From Zarea fungicola (lineage: Eukaryota; Ascomycota; Sordariomycetes; Hypocreales; Cordycipitaceae): a DNA stretch of 64,000 bases. Shown piece after piece: positions 35,542 through 56,298 of the stretch. The notes under the pieces are model-generated. The model was not told the DNA's origin, searched no databases, and worked only from the letters and a program-made list of their open reading frames with translations. Both the position numbers and the translations under genes were made by a program. Location of the stretch: the NCBI GenBank assembly GCA_900169235.1, contig FWCC01000305.1, forward strand, positions 62,001 to 126,000, given 5' to 3'. Each line of letters begins with the position of its first letter. Position 1 is the first letter of the stretch.

Positions 35542-36635
35542 TTTCAGTTCAAGCAAAAAAAAAATCGCGGGAGTAAAGAAATAAGCGGCGTCAATCGATT
35601 TGCACCCCTTAATAGTATTATAGACGCAAACTTGGATAGAAATCAAGACCAAAAGTATTCATACCAAGGGAGTATCGACGTTTTCCTTTCCTCCTTCCTG
35701 TTACATGTTAGTTAGTTGTTGCATATGATGAGGCTGTTTTCAGTCCTGCGCAGGGCGGCCCCGAACACTAACTATCATGAGTTGGTTCGTGCGCTTGTTC
35801 TCCCGTACCACCGCCGTAGACGGAGTTTTTCACAGCACAGAGTCTATAACAGATGATTTGTTGGCAACATGATATGTAAGATGAGGCCGCGTCATCAAGT
35901 AACGCAGCAAATCTGCTCGGCCGGTTCTAGGCTGGACCGATCGATTGTCAAGTCGAAGACTTTGAGCGGCGGTGGAATTTGCGTAGAGTTGTGCCCAACC
36001 CTAGCATCTATCCGATAATTGGTAGATTCACCTCCCTTGTGTACCATGATACGGGCATGATTTTAAGCTCTTGTTACCTAACATCAACAATAAAAAATGA
36101 AACCAGGCTGAGAAAGTTGGCTCTTATAATTCATTTGCAAGGCTGTCGCCATCCATTGCGGGCTCTTACTGATGACATCATGCAGGTTGTCTCCGTTGAA
36201 CAGGGAGATTCACGGTTCACAAAGTAAAACGGAGTTGATACCATTTTCGCCAAGATTGCGCCTGATGCCTATCTCTCGCCTCTCAAATAATGTTATGCTT
36301 GGCATGGAAGGCTCATCGAATACTCCAGCTCGTTCCCATCAGCCGATAGATGTTCTTGTTGGTGGCGGAGATGTCCACGCCTCGAATCAGTCCTTCGTGT
36401 TAGAAAGATAGCGATCCAACGTCGGTTGGCAGTTCTCAGCCCTCCATACTTGGCTCTACGTTTTAGTAGACTTAAATTACGTTTATCTAACCTGATCTAT
36501 CTCTTTTTTGTTCGTCTGATCCTGTTTGCCTGTATTTTATGATAAAAAAGGATTAAATATCGTCCGGATCTTTGCAGCTTCCAACTCGTACATCATTTTA
36601 AACATATCAAAAAATAAAGCTTCTCGGCTAGAAAA
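35542..36635. promoter_or_regulatory. Bidirectional promoter between P450 and PKS
   Basis: A 1.1-kb noncoding gap with the P450 reading left and the PKS reading right, so both are driven from it. A TCCGGA palindrome is at 36563-36568 near the PKS start and a CGGCCG palindrome occurs further left, near 35920; both contain CGG triplets of the sort bound by Zn2Cys6 regulators. Short frames inside have no recognisable family. Confidence 0.5.
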
Positions 36636-39600
36636 ATGGAAAACCCAGGAACTGAAGCATTCCCCGCAATGTTGGTCTTTGGGCCACAGGCAGAGCATCC
36701 GTCAGATTCCGTGACTGATGAGCTTCGACTCGAGCTCGTCAATAGTAATGCACTCTTGGCTCTACGAGAAGCAGCACAGCAGCTACCAGTATTCTGGCAA
36801 GAGCTTGTTACTTTTGATCCTGCTCTATCACAAGTCCCTGGAAGTGAATTTTTGGGCAATATAAAGCACTGGCTTGAGGACGGTGCTGCGCTCCAGCGGC
36901 AAGAGGGAGGCTCTCCTAACCACTTTGCTCTTGCTGTCACTACTTTATTGCAATTCAGCCAGTACAGTCATTACCTGAGCTGCCTTGGCCATGACGCGCA
37001 CTCCAAGGTTGTTCAAAATTTGCAGCGAGGCGGAGCTCAAGGCTTTTGCGTTGGGTTTCTCAATGCTGTCGCTGTGGCCAGCTCACGGAATGAATCCGAT
37101 CTCGGTGCGTACGCCGCGGTTGCCCTTCGTCTTGCTGTGTGTATTGGCGCGTATGTCGATCTAGACGGCCGATATGCGTCTCCCAGAAAGGATTTCTCTG
37201 CTGTTGCTATTTTGTGGAAGGAGGCAAGCCCTGAAAATGAGAGAACAGTATCTGGTATTTTACAGCGTCTTCCCGGTGTAAGCTACCTCCCCGACCACTC
37301 TAGAGGATCAATGTCGCTCATAACAACTATTAGGCCTACATATCGAGTGTCAACGACTACTCCAGCGTGACGATTACGCTCAAAACTGAAGACATCGATC
37401 AACTAAATGAGATTTCCCATGAGAAAAACTTTCGCGTCAAGCGCATCGGTGTTCATGGCCGGTTTCATTCTACCAGGCACCTGCCAGCTGTCGAGAAAAT
37501 AATGAAGCTTGTTGCGACAACAGACAAACTCCAGTTTCCGGATGCTGCGGAGCTAAGACTTCCTCTTCTGGATACAAAAAATGGGCAGCTCATTTCTGTC
37601 GGTTCCTTGACTCGAATTGCACTTGAAAATACGCTTGTCAATGTCGCCAACTGGTCCACGACAGTGGAAGCTTCGGTTCGGAACCTGAAGCGGACCGATA
37701 CCATTCGCTACGCTGGGTTCAGCATGTTTATGCCGCCTTCGACATTGAGAAACTTGGATTTGCGTCTGCAATCCCTATTGGATCCTTCAACATCAACGCC
37801 ATTTATGAATGGGCAGCGCACTGCAAACCAACCGACTGGTGCTGTTCATGGACTCAACAGCGCGACCGAGTCCCCAGATCTGTCAAATTATCCAGCTCAT
37901 TCTATCGCAATTGTTGGCATGGCAGGCCGATTCCCAGGCGCTGATTCCGTCGATGAACTCTGGGATCTTATTATGGAGGCACGGTCAACAGTTGAACCTG
38001 CACCAGTTGAACGGCTGAACCTCCCCCAAACTGGTGCTCATGCCAACGTGCAGTGGTGGGGAAACTTTTTGAAAGACCCGACGGCATTCGATCACAAATT
38101 CTTCAGGAAATCACCTCGCGAGGCTGTAGCATGGGATCCTCAACAGCGAGTTCTACTGGAAGTCATTTACGAATCCTTGGATTCTTCTGGGTACTTTGGC
38201 GCTTCGAAATTGACCCAACCAGATGATTTTGGCTGCTATATCGGTGCTGTCATGAATAACTACTATGACAACCTGACTTGCCACACAGGTACTGCTTATG
38301 CGACCGTTGGAACCTCGCGCTGCTATCTCAGTGGCTGTATGAGCCACTATTTCGGATGGACTGGTCCGTCTTTAACGATTGATACGGCTTGCTCTTCGTC
38401 TCTTGTCGCCATCAACTCCGCCTGCCGAGCAATCTGGTCTGGGGAGTGTTCTCGGGCAGTTGCTGGTGGAACAAACGTTATATCAAGTCCGTTTGACTAC
38501 CAGAATCTTGCCGCGGCTGGTTTCCTCAGCCCATCTGGTCAGTGCAAGCCGTTCGACGCTGGGGCTGATGGCTACTGCAGAGGCGAAGGCGTCGCAGCAG
38601 TGGTTTTAAAACCACTAAAGGATGCCATCAAAGAGAATGACAATATTTTTGGGGTTATAGTAGGCTCGGCTGCCAATCAGAACCACAATATCAGTCAAAT
38701 TACGGCACCGTACTCCCCCTCCCAAGTTGATCTTTACAATAAGGTCATGAAACTCGGCGCCGTGACACCAGAAGCTATATCGTATGTCGAGGCTCATGGA
38801 ACTGGAAGTAAGTCGAGCTTCATTTTCTGGTCATACCCTGCTATTCCGATAGCTATTCAAAATTAGTGCATGAAATTTACTAACAATGGGTCTCAGCCGG
38901 TGTTGGGGATCCAATTGAGGTGCGCAGTATCCGTGATGCTTTCGGCGGATCCGATCGCAAGTCGGTGCTTCACTTTGCATCTATTAAAGGAAACATTGGC
39001 CATACTGAAGCTACAGCTGGTATTGCGGGTCTTATTAAAGTTCTTTTAATGATGAGGCACAGGCAGATACCTGCTCAAGCTAGCCATAGCAGCTTGAACC
39101 CAAAACTACCTAACTTTGCCGACCATCGCATGAAGATCCCTCTGAGTGTCGTACCCTGGAAAGCGTCGTCTTTGGTGGCATGTGTGAATAGTTACGGCGC
39201 AGCGGGAAGCAACTCTGCGTTACTGATTCGGGAGAAGCCAACCTCGGGATGCTCGATTACCCATGAACCGTTGTCGACATATCCTGTCTTCATATCTGCT
39301 GGCTCTGAGACAAGCCTTTCCAATTATTGTGCCAAACTTCTTCAATGGCTGAAGTCTTCTGCTGAAAGTGATTTGCGCCAAGACCTTGCGGCAATATTGT
39401 TTAATCTTGCCGACAGGGGGAACCATGCGCTGCAATATACCTTGGCCACTTCCGTGCGGACCTTGGCAGATTTGGAAGTCAAGCTCCGGTCTGGGGTAGA
39501 AGGCACCGGCACGACAAAAATTCCCGAGAAGTCTAAATCTTCAGTCCTCGTATTTGGTGGCCAAGAAAGTGACTTCATCGGACTCTCTGGGAGCATTTAT

Positions 39601-42600
39601 AGCATGTCCAAAGTTTTTCGCGAGCATTTAGACTCTGTCAATGATCTTCTTGTCTCGGCAGGCTTGGAGAGCATTTATCCCGCTGTTTTCGAATCCAGGT
39701 CTTTGAAAAGCCTGTCAACTCTCCATTCGGCGCTTTTTGCAGTTCAATATGCTTCTGCTATGGCATGGATCGATAGCGGGTTGCAGGTTAGCGCAGTTGT
39801 AGGACACAGCTTCGGACAGCTCACAGCTTTCTGCATCTCGGGAGTTTTATCCCTTGCCGATGCTCTTCAATTGGTAACTGGCAGAGCCTCCATCATGCAA
39901 AACTTCTGGGGCACTGAGCCAGGATCGATGCTGGTTTTGCAAGCCTCCCGAGACATTGTTCTTAGCATTCTTCACGATTTTAAACTTGAAGACAGCAGCG
40001 CTTATGTTGAAGTTGCCTGCTACAATGGCCCGGAAAGTCACGTTCTCGTTGGCTCGTCTGAGGCAATTGGTAACTTACAGTACTACGTGTCAAATCATCA
40101 TAGCTCAATTCGGATGAAAAAGCTCAACGTTACCAATGGATTCCACTCTCATTTCACGGAACCGATGCTCCCGCATCTTGATGCTTTGTCGAAGCGCCTT
40201 GATTGGAAGCAACCAAAGATATATCTAGAAACAACGGATGAGCACGGCAGCATTATTGCACCCGGATACGATATCGCATCCAAGCATACAAGGCAGCCAG
40301 TGTTCTTCGCAAATGCAATTCAGAGGCTTGCCAGCAAACTTTCACCCTGCACATGGATAGAGGCCGGCCGTGGCTCTTCTGTAATGACATTGGTGAAGAA
40401 TTCCGTGCCAAAGCCAGAATTGCACTCCTTCCACTCTCCTCAGCTCACCTCGGCGGCAGCACAGGACTCCCTTACAAGCTGCACCGTTGAGCTTTGGAAG
40501 CATGGCCATGCTGTACAGTTTTGGCCATTTAACAGACTTGAGAAATTGCAGTACAGACATCTTAGTTTGCCATCAATTCAATTTGACAAGAATCGCCACT
40601 GGCTTGCATTCACCGGAAGAACAGATGCAGCAGACGCTGAAACAAGAGCTGTGGAAGATGCTGAAGAGTGCCGTGGGCTCCTTAAATTCGTTCATTTTCA
40701 AGATGCCGTGAAGACGAAATCAGTCTTCCAGATTAATCCAAATTCTGAACGTTTTCAGAAAATGGTAGGTGGCCACGTCATGGCTGGCGAAAGTCTTGCT
40801 CCCGCATCCTTATACTTTGAGGTTGTCTCCCGCGCTGCAATGTTCCTGGAAAGTGATGGGGAGACACTCAAATTTGTGCCGACAGTAAAAAGTCTATCGA
40901 TGAGATCTCCTATTGGGGCTTCCATCACCAAACAGATCTTGCTGCTGCTGCACAGACTTGACAGCCCCACGCCATCTTGGTCCTTCTCCATCACAACACA
41001 GGAGATTGGGGATAAGCGAACAGAGCCTTTTGAACATTCAACAGGCACTGTACATCTTAGGGAAAGAAATGATGCTGAAAGCTCACGAGATTTCGCTCGA
41101 TTCCAAAGTTTAACTGGGCGCGCTCGATTGGAAAACTTAATGGGCCATCCGGATGCCGAGAAAATGCGCGGGAGCCACATCTATCGTGCTTTCAACACCG
41201 TTGTGTACTATGGAGAGCCATTTAGAGGCATTAAAGACGTGGCTTGTGTCGGCTCGGAAGCTGCAGGCAAAGTGCAAATCGCGCTGCCCGTCGACGACCC
41301 TGCTGATCAGCGCCTCTGTGACACTCCAATGACAGACAGTTTCATGCAGTTTGCGGGATTTCTGGTCAACTACTTCAACAACGCAAGTATGGAAACTGTT
41401 TACGTGTGCGGCAAGATTGAACACATTGAGATTGGGGGCGACTTTGATCCCGACGCCGTCGAGTGGCTAGTCTACTCCAACATGAGCAAAGGTGGCGAAA
41501 CCGATGCTGCTTCAGATGTGTACGTTTTCGACGCCAAAACCAAGAAAATTGTTATGATTGCGTTAGGATTTCGGTTTTCAAAAATGCAGCAGAGTACGTT
41601 GCAGCGGATGCTAAAGAGTGTCAATAAAGTCAGGCCAACCATTAGGCAACTTGTCGATGAGTTCCAGCCCCCCGCCGTAATCCCAGTCGCCCCTCTGGTT
41701 GAGAAAACAGGCGTAAAGTCCGAATCTCAATATTCTGGAAAGCGGCAGGAAATATTTCAAATTTTGTCAAATGTTACGGACGTTCCCCTTGATAAGCTCA
41801 CACACTCCTCCACCCTCGACGATTTGGGCGTAGACTCGCTGATGGCTACCGAGGTCCTCAATGACATCCGGGCGGCCTTGGGTATTACCATTGACCTCTC
41901 GAGCTTTTTGTTCTTTCCGGACGTTGAAAGTATTGTCAAGCATGTTGATGAGAGGCTTGGTTTATCTGAGGCAGACATGGCCAGCGAATCAAGCGGCGAT
42001 TCTGGTATCTCAGACATGGACGAGATACAGCCCCAGAAGGAGGAGCACAGAGAAACGTCTCCAGAATCGATCAGGACAGCTACTTCAGATCTGGTCTCTG
42101 AAAGCCAGCTAGAATTGCCATCTACTGTTTCGGCCTTTGAAGAGGTTCGGCTCAACTACGATAAGCTTGCGGAGACCACAGGGGCCGCCGGATTTTGGGA
42201 GAATGCCTATCCGCCTCAAGCTAGGCTCGTCCTTGCTTATGTGGTGGAAGCCTTTGCCGTCTTGGGTTGCGACCTACGAGCCCTAAAATCGGGGAGCCAG
42301 GTACCACCGATAAATACACTTAACAAGCACTCCCAGCTAGTCCGACAGCTCTACCGTATACTGGAAGACGGCGCGCTTGTGGCAATGACTGGGGATGGAA
42401 GTACTTTTGTTCGAACAAGCAAAGAAATCGAGGGTTCCTCTGCCGAGTCGATTTACCATGAGATTATCGATATACACCCGCAGCATGCTAGCATTAACAA
42501 GCTTGTAAGAGCAGTTGGGGCTCAGTTTGCCGCCTGTCTGCGCGGTGAAAAGGAGGGAATCCAAGTTGTATTTGGTAACCGCGAAACCAAAAAGACTCTC

Positions 42601-44364
42601 GAGGATATGTACGAATTCTCTCCTCTGCTGCGAACCCCTACACTTGTTCTGGGCAATTTTTTGGCTAGTGCCATCTCAAAGGCTAATGGAAAGGGAAAGT
42701 TTCGTCTTTTGGAGATTGGGGCTGGAACAGGTGGTACTACTCGGTACATTGTCAACCTCTTGCAGACACTAGGGGTAGACTATGAGTATTTTTATACTGA
42801 TATTAGTCAGTCGCTTGTGAATACAGCTGCAAAGAAAATGAAGGACTCTCCAGGCCTGAAGTTTGAGGTCTTGGACATTGAAAAGCCGCCTGAGGACAGG
42901 ATGCGGGGTGCATTTCATTTTGTTATTGCGACAAATTGTGTCCACGCAACGAGAGATCTGGAGACGTCACTGCGGCATACAAAGCAAATGTTACGCCCCG
43001 ACGGCGCTTTGGCGCTGATCGAAATAACAAAAAATATGTACTGGCTCGACATTGTTGTGGGACTCCTTGAAGGGTGGTGGCTATTTGAGGACGGTCGCGA
43101 GCATGCCTTGGTCAATGAGAGACACTGGGAGCGGCGTATGAAGGCTGCAGGCTTCCGCGAAGTTGCATGGAGCGATGGTGCAACTCCGGAGTCTAAGACA
43201 GTCCGGGTTATTGCCGCTTTCCGTACCAGCACTGAAACAGAGACAGAAAAACCGGTTAAGGCCGCAATGGAGACCCTTGTGTACAAGAAGATTGGTAAAC
43301 TCGAGATCAAGGCCGATGTTTATTATCCGATTGAAACCACAAGGTTTACGGATAAGGACCTTCCAGTTGGTATGTTGACACGTTTATGCCAGGTATCATC
43401 GAAATTTGAATGACCTAGTTGCTGACCAGGGCTAGCACTGATGATTCATGGTGGCAGCCACATGATTTTCAGTCGAAAGGACATAAGACCTGCTCAGACG
43501 CGCCTTTTACTTTCCAAGGGCTTCCTGCCCGTCAGCGTCGACTACCGTCTTTGTCCAGAAGTATCTTTGTCTGAGGGGGCTATGGTAGATGTCTGCGACG
43601 CTCTCGACTGGAGTCGCAACCAACTACCTGCTATTGGGCTACAGCGCTTCGGCCTGCGCATTGACGGCCAAAACTTGGTTGTGGTTGGTTGGTCATCTGG
43701 TGGGCAGCTCGCGATGTCTTTGGCCTGGACTGCGCCTCTGCGAGGTCTCCGACCCCCGTCTGCGGCCCTAGTCTTTTACGCACCGACAGACTACGAAGAT
43801 GAATGGTGGTTGCATCCAATCCATCCCAACGGTGCTCCCTACAAGGGACAAGAATACAACGTGCTTGACAGCGTACAAGAAGCACCTATCACTGGCTACG
43901 GTATCGTCGGGGCGTGGGAGGAGCCCATATCGAATCCGAACAGTATAAACGACCCGCGCTGCCGTCTCATTTTGCATATCAATTGGAAGGCTCAGACCCT
44001 TCCTGTCATCCTAAATGGTCTCCCAAGCAAGAGTAAGGCGCTCAAGGAGCATTCAGGTTGCAAAAACTGGAATGCACTTCCGCAGCCGTCTCTGGATGTT
44101 ATACAAGCTGCGAGTCCGAGGGCCCATATCTTAGACGGTACTTACATTGTCCCAACCTTCTTCATTCACGGGTCCGCAGACGACCTCATTCCATGGCAGC
44201 AAAGTCAAGGGACGTATCATACCATGATTCAAGAAGGTATTGAGTCGGATATAGTGCTCCTCGATGGGGCTCCTCACATCTGCGACTTGAGCAGCGACCC
44301 AGACTCGGAAGGATGGACAGCCACTGTCAAGGGCTACAATTTTATTTGCTCGCGAGTCAAATGA
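36636..44364 (+). CDS. Non-reducing polyketide synthase, SAT-KS-AT-PT-ACP-CMeT-esterase
   Basis: Iterative type-I NR-PKS; exons 36636-37277, 37334-38807, 38897-43369 and 43436-44364 give 2505 aa. Domains and key residues: SAT (about 1-370; Cys138 in GFCVG, His259 in GRFHS), KS (about 398-820; Cys567 in DTACSSS), AT (about 920-1220; Ser1010 in GHSFGQ), PT (about 1300-1600; His1332 in GGHVMAGESLAP, Asp1519 in MTDSF), one ACP (Ser1686 in LGVDSL), C-methyltransferase (about 1790-2150; LEIGAGTGGTTRY at about 1978) and a C-terminal alpha/beta hydrolase (about 2180-2505; IHGGSH, Ser2283 in GWSSGG, Asp in SADDL, His in GAPHICD). This order is that of the NR-PKS group making 3- or 5-methylorsellinic and dimethylorsellinic acids. 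All catalytic residues are present, so it looks functional. The exact product, starter unit and number of methylations cannot be read from sequence. Confidence 0.96.
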
Positions 44365-55047: not shown

Positions 55048-56298
55048 CTAATGAATTCCCATGCCCTTGTAATCGACAGTGTCAATGGGTTCCTCGTTCA
55101 AATCCGGGTTCGTCCGCTCGCGATCCTGAATGTACTCCTAAATGCCAGATGCTTTAGCAGGCGAGAGGAAACATTGCAAAAATTAATAATGGTCGACTTA
55201 CCAAGCAGTGAATGGCATGTGCATTCATATCGGCCGTCATCTTGCTACCATTTCCAGTAATCTGCCAGGCAAGCATCATTCGAAGATTGGCAAGGCAGTG
55301 TCTTCGGTGGTAAGTACTTTGAATAAACCCAAAGCCGTTGGCTTGCCCTCCCTCGATGAAGTTGGGTTCGCCCTCGACCTGGTCTCCGGTCCAGAATCCT
55401 CCATGATTCACAGAAGATGCCCAGTAGTTCGCAACCCATGCATCACCATCTGCGCTCATTTTCGCCGCTCCGTCTGCAGTCAGCTCCGGCTTTCCAGAAA
55501 CTCTGTGCGCAATGTTGACTCGCTCGATAGCACCGAGGGCCAAATTGTCACGGTTTAACAGGCTGTCATACAAAGCAGCAGTATTAATGGCGCTGCGCTT
55601 GATGCCGCCACCCATTGCACCCGACTTCGCATATGCGAATTCACGGGTATCTTCGACATCACTGCGCTTCACAGAATTGCCCATGGTGCCTGATCGAAGA
55701 TATCCAAATTCACGGGTATCCTCAGCATCACTGCGCTTTACAGAATTGCCCATGGTACCTGATCGAAGATATCCAAATTCACGGCTGTCTTCAGCATCAC
55801 TTCGTTTTGCATGATTTCCCATTGTGCCAGCTCGAGTATAACCAAATTCTCGGTTATCTTCGGCGTCTTCTCCATGGACCGAAACAGGCCTAGCTGTAGG
55901 GAGAGCTGACGGGAGAACCATACCGAAGGCTTGAGACAGGTCTATGAGCGGCAAGTCCAAAGCCTCTCGCTCGATGTTGACTCTAAAAGAAATTTCATGT
56001 TCAGCAAAGTCAGAACTTGAAAAAATATAAGCAAACAAGGAGTGGAAATTGCTTACCTCATAATGGTGTCGTTTCGGAATGCTTGGCCTTTGTCACTCAT
56101 ATCATCCAGGTGCTCCTGGGCAGCTTCGAGCCTCTGGCGAGTGTCGTTGGACAAGGTGCCCTGCCAGATGTCTCCCTCAAAAGGAGTCTCACGTATAATC
56201 ATGGCAGGGACTTGGTCAACAGAGACGACTGCTAGAGCCTGCGTCCTAAACATGGAAATGGCAGCAAGAATAACAAATGTTGAATGAAAGTTGATCAT
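55048..56298 (-). CDS. Secreted Kex2-repeat protein with UstYa-like HxxHC C-terminus (putative RiPP precursor fusion)
   Basis: Three exons, 56057-56298, 55202-55982 and 55048-55137, give 370 aa. Residues 1-23 form a signal peptide (ending ...FRTQALA). Residues 119-210 are four 23-residue tandem repeats, each with an acidic start, a core REF-[GA]-Y followed by GxMG, and a closing Lys-Arg (140-141, 163-164, 186-187, 209-210) suited to the Golgi protease Kex2. After a 95-residue linker come two HxxHC motifs, HRRHC (306-310) and HAIHC (336-340), spaced 30 residues apart in contexts STYHRRHCLANLR and AHAIHCLEYI, as in UstYa/DUF3328 oxidases of dikaritin biosynthesis. The last exon is supported by a strong GTAAGT donor after HAIHCL and an ATTTAG acceptor; without it the frame would run into intron sequence. 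Kex2 precursors and DUF3328 enzymes are normally separate genes. Alternative: a secreted repeat protein whose HxxHC motifs are coincidental. Repeats are certain; oxidase homology rests on motifs. Confidence 0.8.
55595..55870 (-). repeat. Four 69-nt in-frame tandem repeats in the Kex2-repeat gene
   Basis: Four exact-length 69-nt units encode the 23-residue peptide repeats. Phase-shifted units at 55642-55710 and 55711-55779 differ at only about five positions, mostly silent, whereas the outer copies are more diverged. This suggests recent duplication or homogenisation of the inner copies. Confidence 0.92.

What the first reader, a model, noticed from the sequence alone, without database searches (positions are those of the whole stretch)
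55048..56298. Kex2-type peptide repeats and UstYa-like HxxHC motifs in one secreted protein
Seen: a signal peptide, four 23-residue repeats each ending Lys-Arg with a conserved Phe-x-Tyr core, then HRRHC and HAIHC 30 residues apart at the C-terminus. Known: in dikaritin RiPP pathways (ustiloxin, phomopsin, asperipin) the Kex2-cleaved repeat precursor and the DUF3328 UstYa oxidases, defined by paired HxxHC motifs, are separate proteins. Inference: this may be a self-contained precursor-oxidase fusion, or an evolutionary intermediate, releasing up to four Tyr-containing peptides.
Basis: partly seen in the sequence, partly recalled or inferred. Interest (0 to 1): 0.9.

Follow-up and report, generated by a model that had tools for sequence, protein, structure and literature searches.

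The report
Fungal peptide precursor carrying own oxidase
One secreted fungal protein appears to carry both a string of near-identical peptides ready to be cut out and, on the same chain, a relative of the copper enzymes that normally tie such peptides into rings, and the same arrangement recurs in many related fungi.

Summary
On the minus strand (56298-55048) a three-exon gene encodes 370 residues: apparent signal peptide, conserved leader, four 23-residue repeats ending Lys-Arg, and a C-terminal domain with HRRHC and HAIHC. Repeats and both motifs share one uninterrupted frame, so the fusion does not depend on splicing. The domain is a divergent UstYa/DUF3328: the window copy is below Pfam's cut-off (17-19 of 25 bits), but all 31 family members scanned match PF11807 at E<=1, best 4e-10, and profile comparison gives P=7e-9, unmatched by 100 motif-preserving shuffles. 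The fusion recurs in 12 named genera and in Diaporthe, with 1-10 repeats sharing a Glu-x-x-Tyr...Met core. Best explanation: a self-contained RiPP precursor-oxidase whose UstYa-type domain modifies its own Tyr repeats before kexin-type release, a fungal counterpart of fused plant BURP cyclases. Catalysis and products are inferred. Corrections: Phe-x-Tyr is not family-wide, dibasic sites are not universal, some members have a damaged HxxHC, and 'evolutionary intermediate' has no support. The open-licence papers searched gave no description of this fusion.

The parts
55048..56298 (-). whole gene, three exons, 370 aa precursor-UstYa fusion
56057..56298 (-). exon 1: signal-peptide-like N-terminus and first part of the leader
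   Evidence: the frames of P0007, P0018, P0027 and P0034 begin at (M)RV/INIERE, just after this exon's end
55202..55982 (-). exon 2: rest of leader, four repeats, UstYa-like domain with both HxxHC motifs, in one open frame
55048..55137 (-). exon 3: C-terminal tail ...EEPIDTVDYKGMGIH and stop, nearly invariant in the family
   Evidence: tail lines up with classical UstYa DLTPIPLVYSKGAG
56230..56298 (-). signal peptide (residues 1 to about 23; cleavage site not predicted)
   Evidence: hydrophobic N-terminus read by eye; no predictor run
55904..56172 (-). conserved leader (about residues 43-107, spans intron 1): W..TLS.DTR.R...GQAFRNDTIMRVNIEREALDL..IDL.QAFG..LP
   Evidence: residues 41-70 of relative P0015 modelled at pLDDT 84-91; no similarity to UstYa
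55802..55870 (-). repeat 1 EDAEDNREFGYTRAGTMGNHAKR (no Lys-Arg before it)
55733..55801 (-). repeat 2 SDAEDSREFGYLRSGTMGNSVKR
55664..55732 (-). repeat 3 SDAEDTREFGYLRSGTMGNSVKR
55595..55663 (-). repeat 4 SDVEDTREFAYAKSGAMGGGIKR; its Lys-Arg separates the repeats from the domain
55295..55309 (-). first HxxHC motif, HRRHC (residues 306-310)
55205..55219 (-). second HxxHC motif, HAIHC (residues 336-340)

Best explanation
The gene encodes a single-chain ('fused') fungal RiPP precursor and tailoring enzyme. Shown: the precursor layout (hydrophobic N-terminus, conserved leader, tandem repeats with a conserved Tyr and a boundary Arg), homology of the C-terminal domain to UstYa/DUF3328 with both HxxHC motifs, and conservation of the fusion in many fungi. 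Inferred: the chain enters the secretory pathway; the UstYa-like domain binds copper through the two HxxHC motifs and oxidises the Tyr-containing repeats of its own chain (in cis, or between chains), most likely at the conserved Tyr, as a cross-link or another oxidation (2 Da lost per cross-link, 16 Da gained per hydroxylation); kexin or a similar Arg-specific protease then cuts at the repeat boundaries, releasing peptides of about 21-23 residues and freeing the domain. Because substrate and enzyme are on one gene, no separate precursor or UstYa need be clustered with it, and none was found on its contig.
For: One open frame holds repeats and both motifs. PF11807 is matched at E<=1 by 31 of 31 A2 members (30 relatives and the window's own frame P0001), best 4.1e-10; P0002 scores 27.1 bits, over the 25-bit cut-off; precomputed PF11807 in 21 of the 33 hits. 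Profile-profile: probability 95.8, P 6.8e-9 against 9 UstYa fragments of the same genome; 0 of 100 shuffles that keep the two motifs reach the real score (57.6; best shuffle 42.4). Against 23 UstYa proteins 65 columns align into the tail (29% identity, P 3e-8 to 4e-8), 0 of 60 motif-keeping shuffles reach that score (56.6; best 43.8), and with both motifs masked the same register still scores 23.9 against a maximum of 18.7 in 60 shuffles. The fusion recurs in 12 named genera plus Diaporthe, with 1-10 units by a motif search. A scan that ignored the Tyr column found 129 units and all 129 had Tyr; 128 of 129 have a nearby upstream Arg (37 proteins, window included). The own genome gave no second gene related to this protein except a weak UstYa hit (E 0.129), no PF11807 hit on this contig among 55 and no tyrosinase hit on it among 9. 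DUF3328 enzymes are described as dicopper, oxygen-dependent oxidases in PMC12186524 (passages).
Against: No activity, transcript or peptide was measured. The window sequence alone is under Pfam's cut-off, and the gene itself is absent from the PF11807 list of its own genome, so that list is not exhaustive. With motifs masked there was no signal against the smaller own-genome set (16.9, within the masked-shuffle range up to 23.1). Two Cys that are invariant in classical UstYa are missing. Damaged motifs occur: HKLYC in P0016, P0025, P0035 (Metarhizium) and unnamed P0032; HKLHR in P0038 (Metarhizium acridum) and unnamed P0042; YAMHC for the second motif in Diaporthe P0034. Some members have a single unit (P0015, P0016, P0020). 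Only 79 of 129 boundaries were scored dibasic (KR 72, RR 7); Drechmeria has KR at 1 of 10. The Tyr count is partly circular because the matrix was trained on Tyr-containing units, and one divergent unit of P0026 has His there. The repeats are modelled with pLDDT under 50 and no structure match was found.
Confidence: 0.6

Rival explanations
1. The repeats are a cleavable pro-region or spacer: kexin cutting frees a secreted UstYa-like enzyme that acts on some other substrate, and the released repeat peptides are by-products.
For: A Lys-Arg also separates the last repeat from the domain in the window, and an Arg does so in many relatives; repeat number drifts between 1 and 10.
Against: A mere spacer would not be expected to keep E-x-x-Y-x-R-x-G-x-M in unit after unit across genera, nor to be amplified to ten such units (P0003).
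Confidence: 0.2
2. The product is a set of unmodified secreted peptides (signal or effector), and the domain is a non-catalytic remnant, perhaps a folding or metal-binding part.
For: Kex2-processed repeat protein (KEP) types without DUF3328 genes nearby are common (PMC7329392, Table 2); a motif is damaged in several relatives, named ones being Metarhizium and Diaporthe; the classical Cys pair is lost.
Against: Both motifs are intact in 15 of the 16 sequences of alignment A1 (all but P0016), and the domain is among the most conserved parts of the chain, its tail conserved to the last residue.
Confidence: 0.13
3. Chance motifs or a gene-model artefact.
For: The window protein alone is under Pfam's cut-off.
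Against: Single open frame, relatives with the same layout and shared second-intron position, profile statistics.
Confidence: 0.02

Closest known systems
Dikaritin RiPP pathways (ustiloxin, phomopsin, asperipin-2a): UstYa/UstYb/AprY-type DUF3328 oxidases with separate kexin-processed precursors
   Same: Repeat precursor for secretion with basic cut sites and aromatic residues in the cores; oxidase domain with two HxxHC motifs.
   Different: Here precursor and oxidase domain are one polypeptide; two Cys usual in UstYa are lost; no tyrosinase or other PF11807 hit on the contig.
Fused (autocatalytic) BURP-domain peptide cyclases of plants (e.g. AhyBURP)
   Same: Signal sequence, core peptides, then a C-terminal copper-dependent cyclase on one chain (PMC10880069, PMC12186524 and PMC12874468, passages).
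   Different: Different domain family; plants rather than fungi. A parallel in layout, not a relationship.
Borosin precursors such as OphA (omphalotin)
   Same: A fungal enzyme fused to its own RiPP core (PMC6514808, passages).
   Different: Methyltransferase, core at the C-terminus, not the kexin-repeat type.
KEPs, Kex2-processed repeat proteins (PMC7329392)
   Same: Signal peptide and at least 3 repeats of at least 8 aa between dibasic sites (definition).
   Different: In the parts of that paper I read, DUF3328 is counted in neighbouring genes, and no listed KEP type carries it in the protein; its supplement was not available.
Epichloecyclin precursor GigA
   Same: Repeat precursor of Epichloe with Tyr-containing cores, thought to be Kex2-processed (PMC9233826, passages).
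   Different: Described as a repetitive precursor; I compared no GigA sequence. Epichloe bromicola also has a member of the family described here (P0017).

Membership tests
UstYa / DUF3328 (PF11807) | two HxxHC motifs about 30 residues apart | tested here: met
   HRRHC 306, HAIHC 336; both intact in 15 of 16 rows of A1; damaged in P0016, P0025, P0032, P0034, P0035, P0038 and P0042
UstYa / DUF3328 (PF11807) | Pfam score over the curated cut-off | tested here: inconclusive
   window copy 17 bits, domain alone 19, against 25: not met; relative P0002 27.1 bits: met; P0034 22.9: not met; 31 of 31 A2 members match at E<=1
UstYa / DUF3328 (PF11807) | homology beyond the two motifs | tested here: met
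   0 of 100 and 0 of 60 motif-keeping shuffles reach the real score; motifs masked: 23.9 against shuffle maximum 18.7 with 23 UstYa proteins, but no signal with the 9 own-genome fragments (16.9 against maximum 23.1)
UstYa / DUF3328 (PF11807) | C-terminal Cys residues usual in UstYa (CxxD and HxC) | tested here: not met
   C139 and C167 are invariant in the 8 sequences of A3; the window protein has Cys only at 310 and 340. The aligned Asp is kept, and, though not, the family's last His falls on the His of HxC. I treat this as typical rather than defining
UstYa / DUF3328 (PF11807) | copper-dependent oxidase activity | not testable with these tools
   needs protein
UstYa / DUF3328 (PF11807) | same fold as UstYa | tested here: inconclusive
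   no PDB chain matches A3 at E<=1; model pLDDT 58.8, pTM 0.36; Foldseek no match at E<=0.001
KEP (PMC7329392 definition) | signal peptide, >=3 tandem repeats of >=8 aa between KR/KK/RK/RR sites | tested here: met
   three repeats flanked on both sides by KR plus one with KR on one side; definition read; signal peptide judged by eye
dikaritin pathway | precursor and DUF3328 oxidase as separate genes in a cluster | tested here: not met
   single fused gene; no PF11807 hit on contig C403 among 55 and no tyrosinase hit among 9 (both searches score only the best candidates, exon by exon)
dikaritin pathway | Tyr side-chain ether cross-link in the product | not testable with these tools
   needs mass spectrometry or NMR
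fused BURP cyclase | BURP domain | tested here: not met
   Pfam lists only UstYa and a weak GCV_T_C match for the window protein at E<=10

The most novel reading that the evidence does not exclude
A conserved class of self-modifying fungal RiPP precursors: leader, tandem Tyr cores and UstYa-type dicopper oxidase on one chain, in which the conserved leader holds the repeats near the oxidase domain so that every core is oxidised before kexin releases it; a convergent fungal counterpart of the fused plant burpitide cyclases that needs only one gene.
Probability: 0.5. Interest if true: 0.9.

Novelty: new variant of a known kind. Interest (0 to 1): 0.78.

Why it matters
UstYa enzymes are studied as separate proteins whose substrates must be guessed from gene neighbours. 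A fused family states its likely substrate outright, needs one gene to test, and lets product diversity be read from the repeats across many species. If true it would show that fungi and plants each arrived at a single-chain precursor plus copper oxidase, and, if genome mining for separate precursor and oxidase genes passes such genes over, it would mark a class worth adding to the search.

Tried and rejected
Structure: AlphaFold2 on the 31-member family alignment gave pLDDT 43.7; with UstYa proteins added 58.8. Foldseek against the PDB gave nothing at E<=0.001. No significant PDB match by sequence (best E 0.21, none at E<=1).

Leader as the missing N-terminal half of UstYa: rejected, hhalign probability 0.1 percent. 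Repeat as a copy of the UstYa segment before the domain (NGTMYRD-like): seen only in a multiple alignment and a forced global alignment, not in the local alignment; dropped.

A separate precursor or second oxidase related to this protein in the same genome: only a weak UstYa hit, E 0.129. Membership of the neighbouring polyketide cluster: cannot be decided, no related fungal genomes are held for synteny. NCBIfam gave no hit; the plasmid search was uninformative for a fungal gene.

Literature: 10 searches; passages of PMC7329392 (also section 6 part 1 of 2, and section 13), PMC12048977, PMC12186524, PMC6339444, PMC6514808, PMC9233826, PMC12874468, PMC10880069 and PMC11253845. None described a UstYa-precursor fusion. 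Of the 6 papers listed with both 'DUF3328' and 'fused' (7 counted) I looked at passages of 5, not PMC10373908. One search found no paper with any of six sequence words of the family. Only open-licence papers are held and supplements were not available; the copper paper of Chiang et al. 2025 is not held and was seen only as a reference.

Rows dropped: L021 and L044 (long insertions) were left out of the own-genome UstYa set, 9 of 11 kept; A3 used 8. P0020 and P0027 (incomplete domain) were left out of the family domain set, 17 of 19 kept. P0030 and P0033 (truncated or degraded) were left out of A2, 31 of 33 kept. The UstYa set used 23 of the 29 new proteins, a search whose query already contained UstYa fragments. 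One search scored only the 7995 candidates sharing most words.

Full report
What is there. The gene lies on the minus strand, 56298-55048. Splicing at GT..AG introns of 74 and 64 nt gives 370 residues: a hydrophobic N-terminus, a leader, four 23-residue units with Lys-Arg at 140, 163, 186 and 209, then HRRHC (306) and HAIHC (336). The 312-codon open frame 55154-56092 contains the repeats and both motifs, so the fusion stands even if the exon joins were wrong. The genome is a 43 Mb assembly in 456 contigs, fungal by its genes. Among the closest named relatives are Lecanicillium, Beauveria and Aphanocladium proteins at 58-59% identity over the whole query (Purpureocillium and Pochonia reach 59% over 88-89% of it).

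The family. A protein search gave 33 hits, one of them (P0001) the window's own frame; a second one with the family alignment gave 44, of which 13 were new. Named members come from Lecanicillium, Drechmeria, Ophiocordyceps, Beauveria, Aphanocladium, Claviceps, Purpureocillium, Pochonia, Conoideocrella, Metarhizium, Epichloe and Hirsutella, and from Diaporthe (P0034: five repeats and the domain, with its gene model running on into an unrelated stretch). Colletotrichum is seen only as domain fragments (P0043, read; P0070, listed, not read). Units found by a motif search range from 1 to 10 (P0033 gave none and looks degraded). In an alignment of 16 members the leader, the Tyr and Met of a repeat, the motifs and the tail EEPIDT.DY.GMGIH are invariant or nearly so.

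The repeat. A position matrix that left out the Tyr column found 129 units, all with Tyr; leaving out Met, 126 of 130 have Met; the full matrix found 129 units in 37 proteins, the window included. The matrix was trained on units containing Glu, Tyr and Met, so this is not fully independent; one divergent unit of P0026 has His in place of Tyr. An Arg lies at or just before the start of 128 of 129 units, preceded by Lys in 72 and Arg in 7; the rest are QR, TR, AR, SR and others (P0015 was scored SR although a KR lies two residues before). Drechmeria has KR at 1 of 10. So the cut fits kexin in the window and many relatives, but the general statement must be 'Arg boundary'. The window's own first unit lacks a preceding basic site.

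The domain. Pfam UstYa (PF11807) scores 17 bits for the whole window protein and 19 for its domain, cut-off 25; all 31 members of A2 match at E<=1, best 4.1e-10. Profile comparison of 17 family domains with 9 UstYa fragments of the same genome: probability 95.8, P 6.8e-9, score 57.6; with all columns but the motifs shuffled, 0 of 100 reach it (maximum 42.4); with the motifs masked the score is 16.9, inside the range of 60 masked shuffles (maximum 23.1). Against 23 UstYa proteins: 56.6; 0 of 60 motif-keeping shuffles reach it (maximum 43.8); with motifs masked 23.9 in the same register, above all 60 masked shuffles (maximum 18.7); with the tail masked 45.9. The aligned stretch runs on into the tail, where the family's D-L-x-x-E-P-I-x-x-V-x-x-K-G-x-G matches UstYa D-L-T-P-I-P-L-V-x-x-K-G-x-G. 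In some searches the family's last residue, His, falls on the His of the UstYa HxC motif; it does not. The CxxD and HxC cysteines are both missing; the only two Cys in the window protein are in the HxxHC motifs. I take this as a divergent but real branch of UstYa.

The leader has no similarity to UstYa and the protein has no Pfam match there. In the model of P0015, residues 41-70 of the leader form helices at pLDDT 84-91, and the motifs lie in helices 227-247 and 256-275 at about 76-83; the repeat and the rest are mostly poorly predicted. That the leader positions the repeats is a guess.

Context. The only other match to this protein in its genome is a weak UstYa hit on another contig (E 0.129). 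PF11807 has 55 listed matches, none on this contig; this gene itself is not among them, so the list is not exhaustive. Tyrosinase has 9, none on this contig. Neighbours include a non-reducing polyketide synthase with SAT, KS, AT, DH, ACP and methyltransferase domains at about 36.6-44.4 kb, an MFS transporter, a transcription factor, an NmrA-like protein and an alpha/beta hydrolase on one side and an amine oxidase on the other. Nothing found links them to this protein.

How it works. The layout is that of the fused plant BURP cyclases: signal sequence, cores, C-terminal copper cyclase on one chain (passages). DUF3328/UstY enzymes are reported there to use a dicopper site and O2 and to do cyclisation, halogenation and hydroxylation. 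I therefore put self-oxidation of the repeats before proteolysis first (0.6), a pro-region of an enzyme acting elsewhere second (0.2), and unmodified peptides with a spent domain third (0.13). Metarhizium members have one or two units and a damaged first motif (P0016, P0025, P0035 HKLYC; P0038 HKLHR), a hint that repeats and motifs decay together; but this is one lineage, P0015 keeps intact motifs with a single unit, and Diaporthe P0034 has five units with a damaged second motif (YAMHC).

Novelty. Ten paper searches and passages of nine papers showed no fusion of this kind (calls listed under Tried and rejected). The KEP survey (PMC7329392) counts DUF3328 in neighbouring genes, in the parts read. 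Subscription papers and supplements were not searched, so prior description cannot be excluded. I rate it a new variant of a known kind.

Noticed in passing
L008, L018-L022, L027-L029, L031-L034, L037-L043, L045, L048 (own-genome UstYa loci) and window 55138-55201: In 22 own-genome UstYa loci the frame reads on as His-Cys-(Leu/Val)-Val after the FIRST HxxHC, as if an intron sits there; in the fused family the shared intron sits right after His-Cys-Leu of the SECOND HxxHC.
   Followed up: partly
L002 minus strand, L006 plus strand frame 0 and minus strand frame 1: Three frames with two HxxHC motifs about 30 residues apart near UstYa hits that match no Pfam family at E<=0.1; possibly an undescribed dual-HxxHC family.
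   Followed up: partly
G000 contigs C43 (about 18 kb and 24.6 kb) and C157 (about 123 kb): UstYa and tyrosinase hits lie close together, candidate classical dikaritin-like clusters in the same genome.
   Followed up: no
window 36618-44361: Non-reducing polyketide synthase with SAT, KS, AT, DH, ACP and methyltransferase domains followed by an alpha/beta hydrolase, with MFS transporter and transcription factor nearby.
   Followed up: no
P0033 (Claviceps citrina), P0030 (Beauveria bassiana): P0033 keeps a degraded domain and no recognisable repeats; P0030 keeps leader and repeats but its frame ends before the domain.
   Followed up: partly
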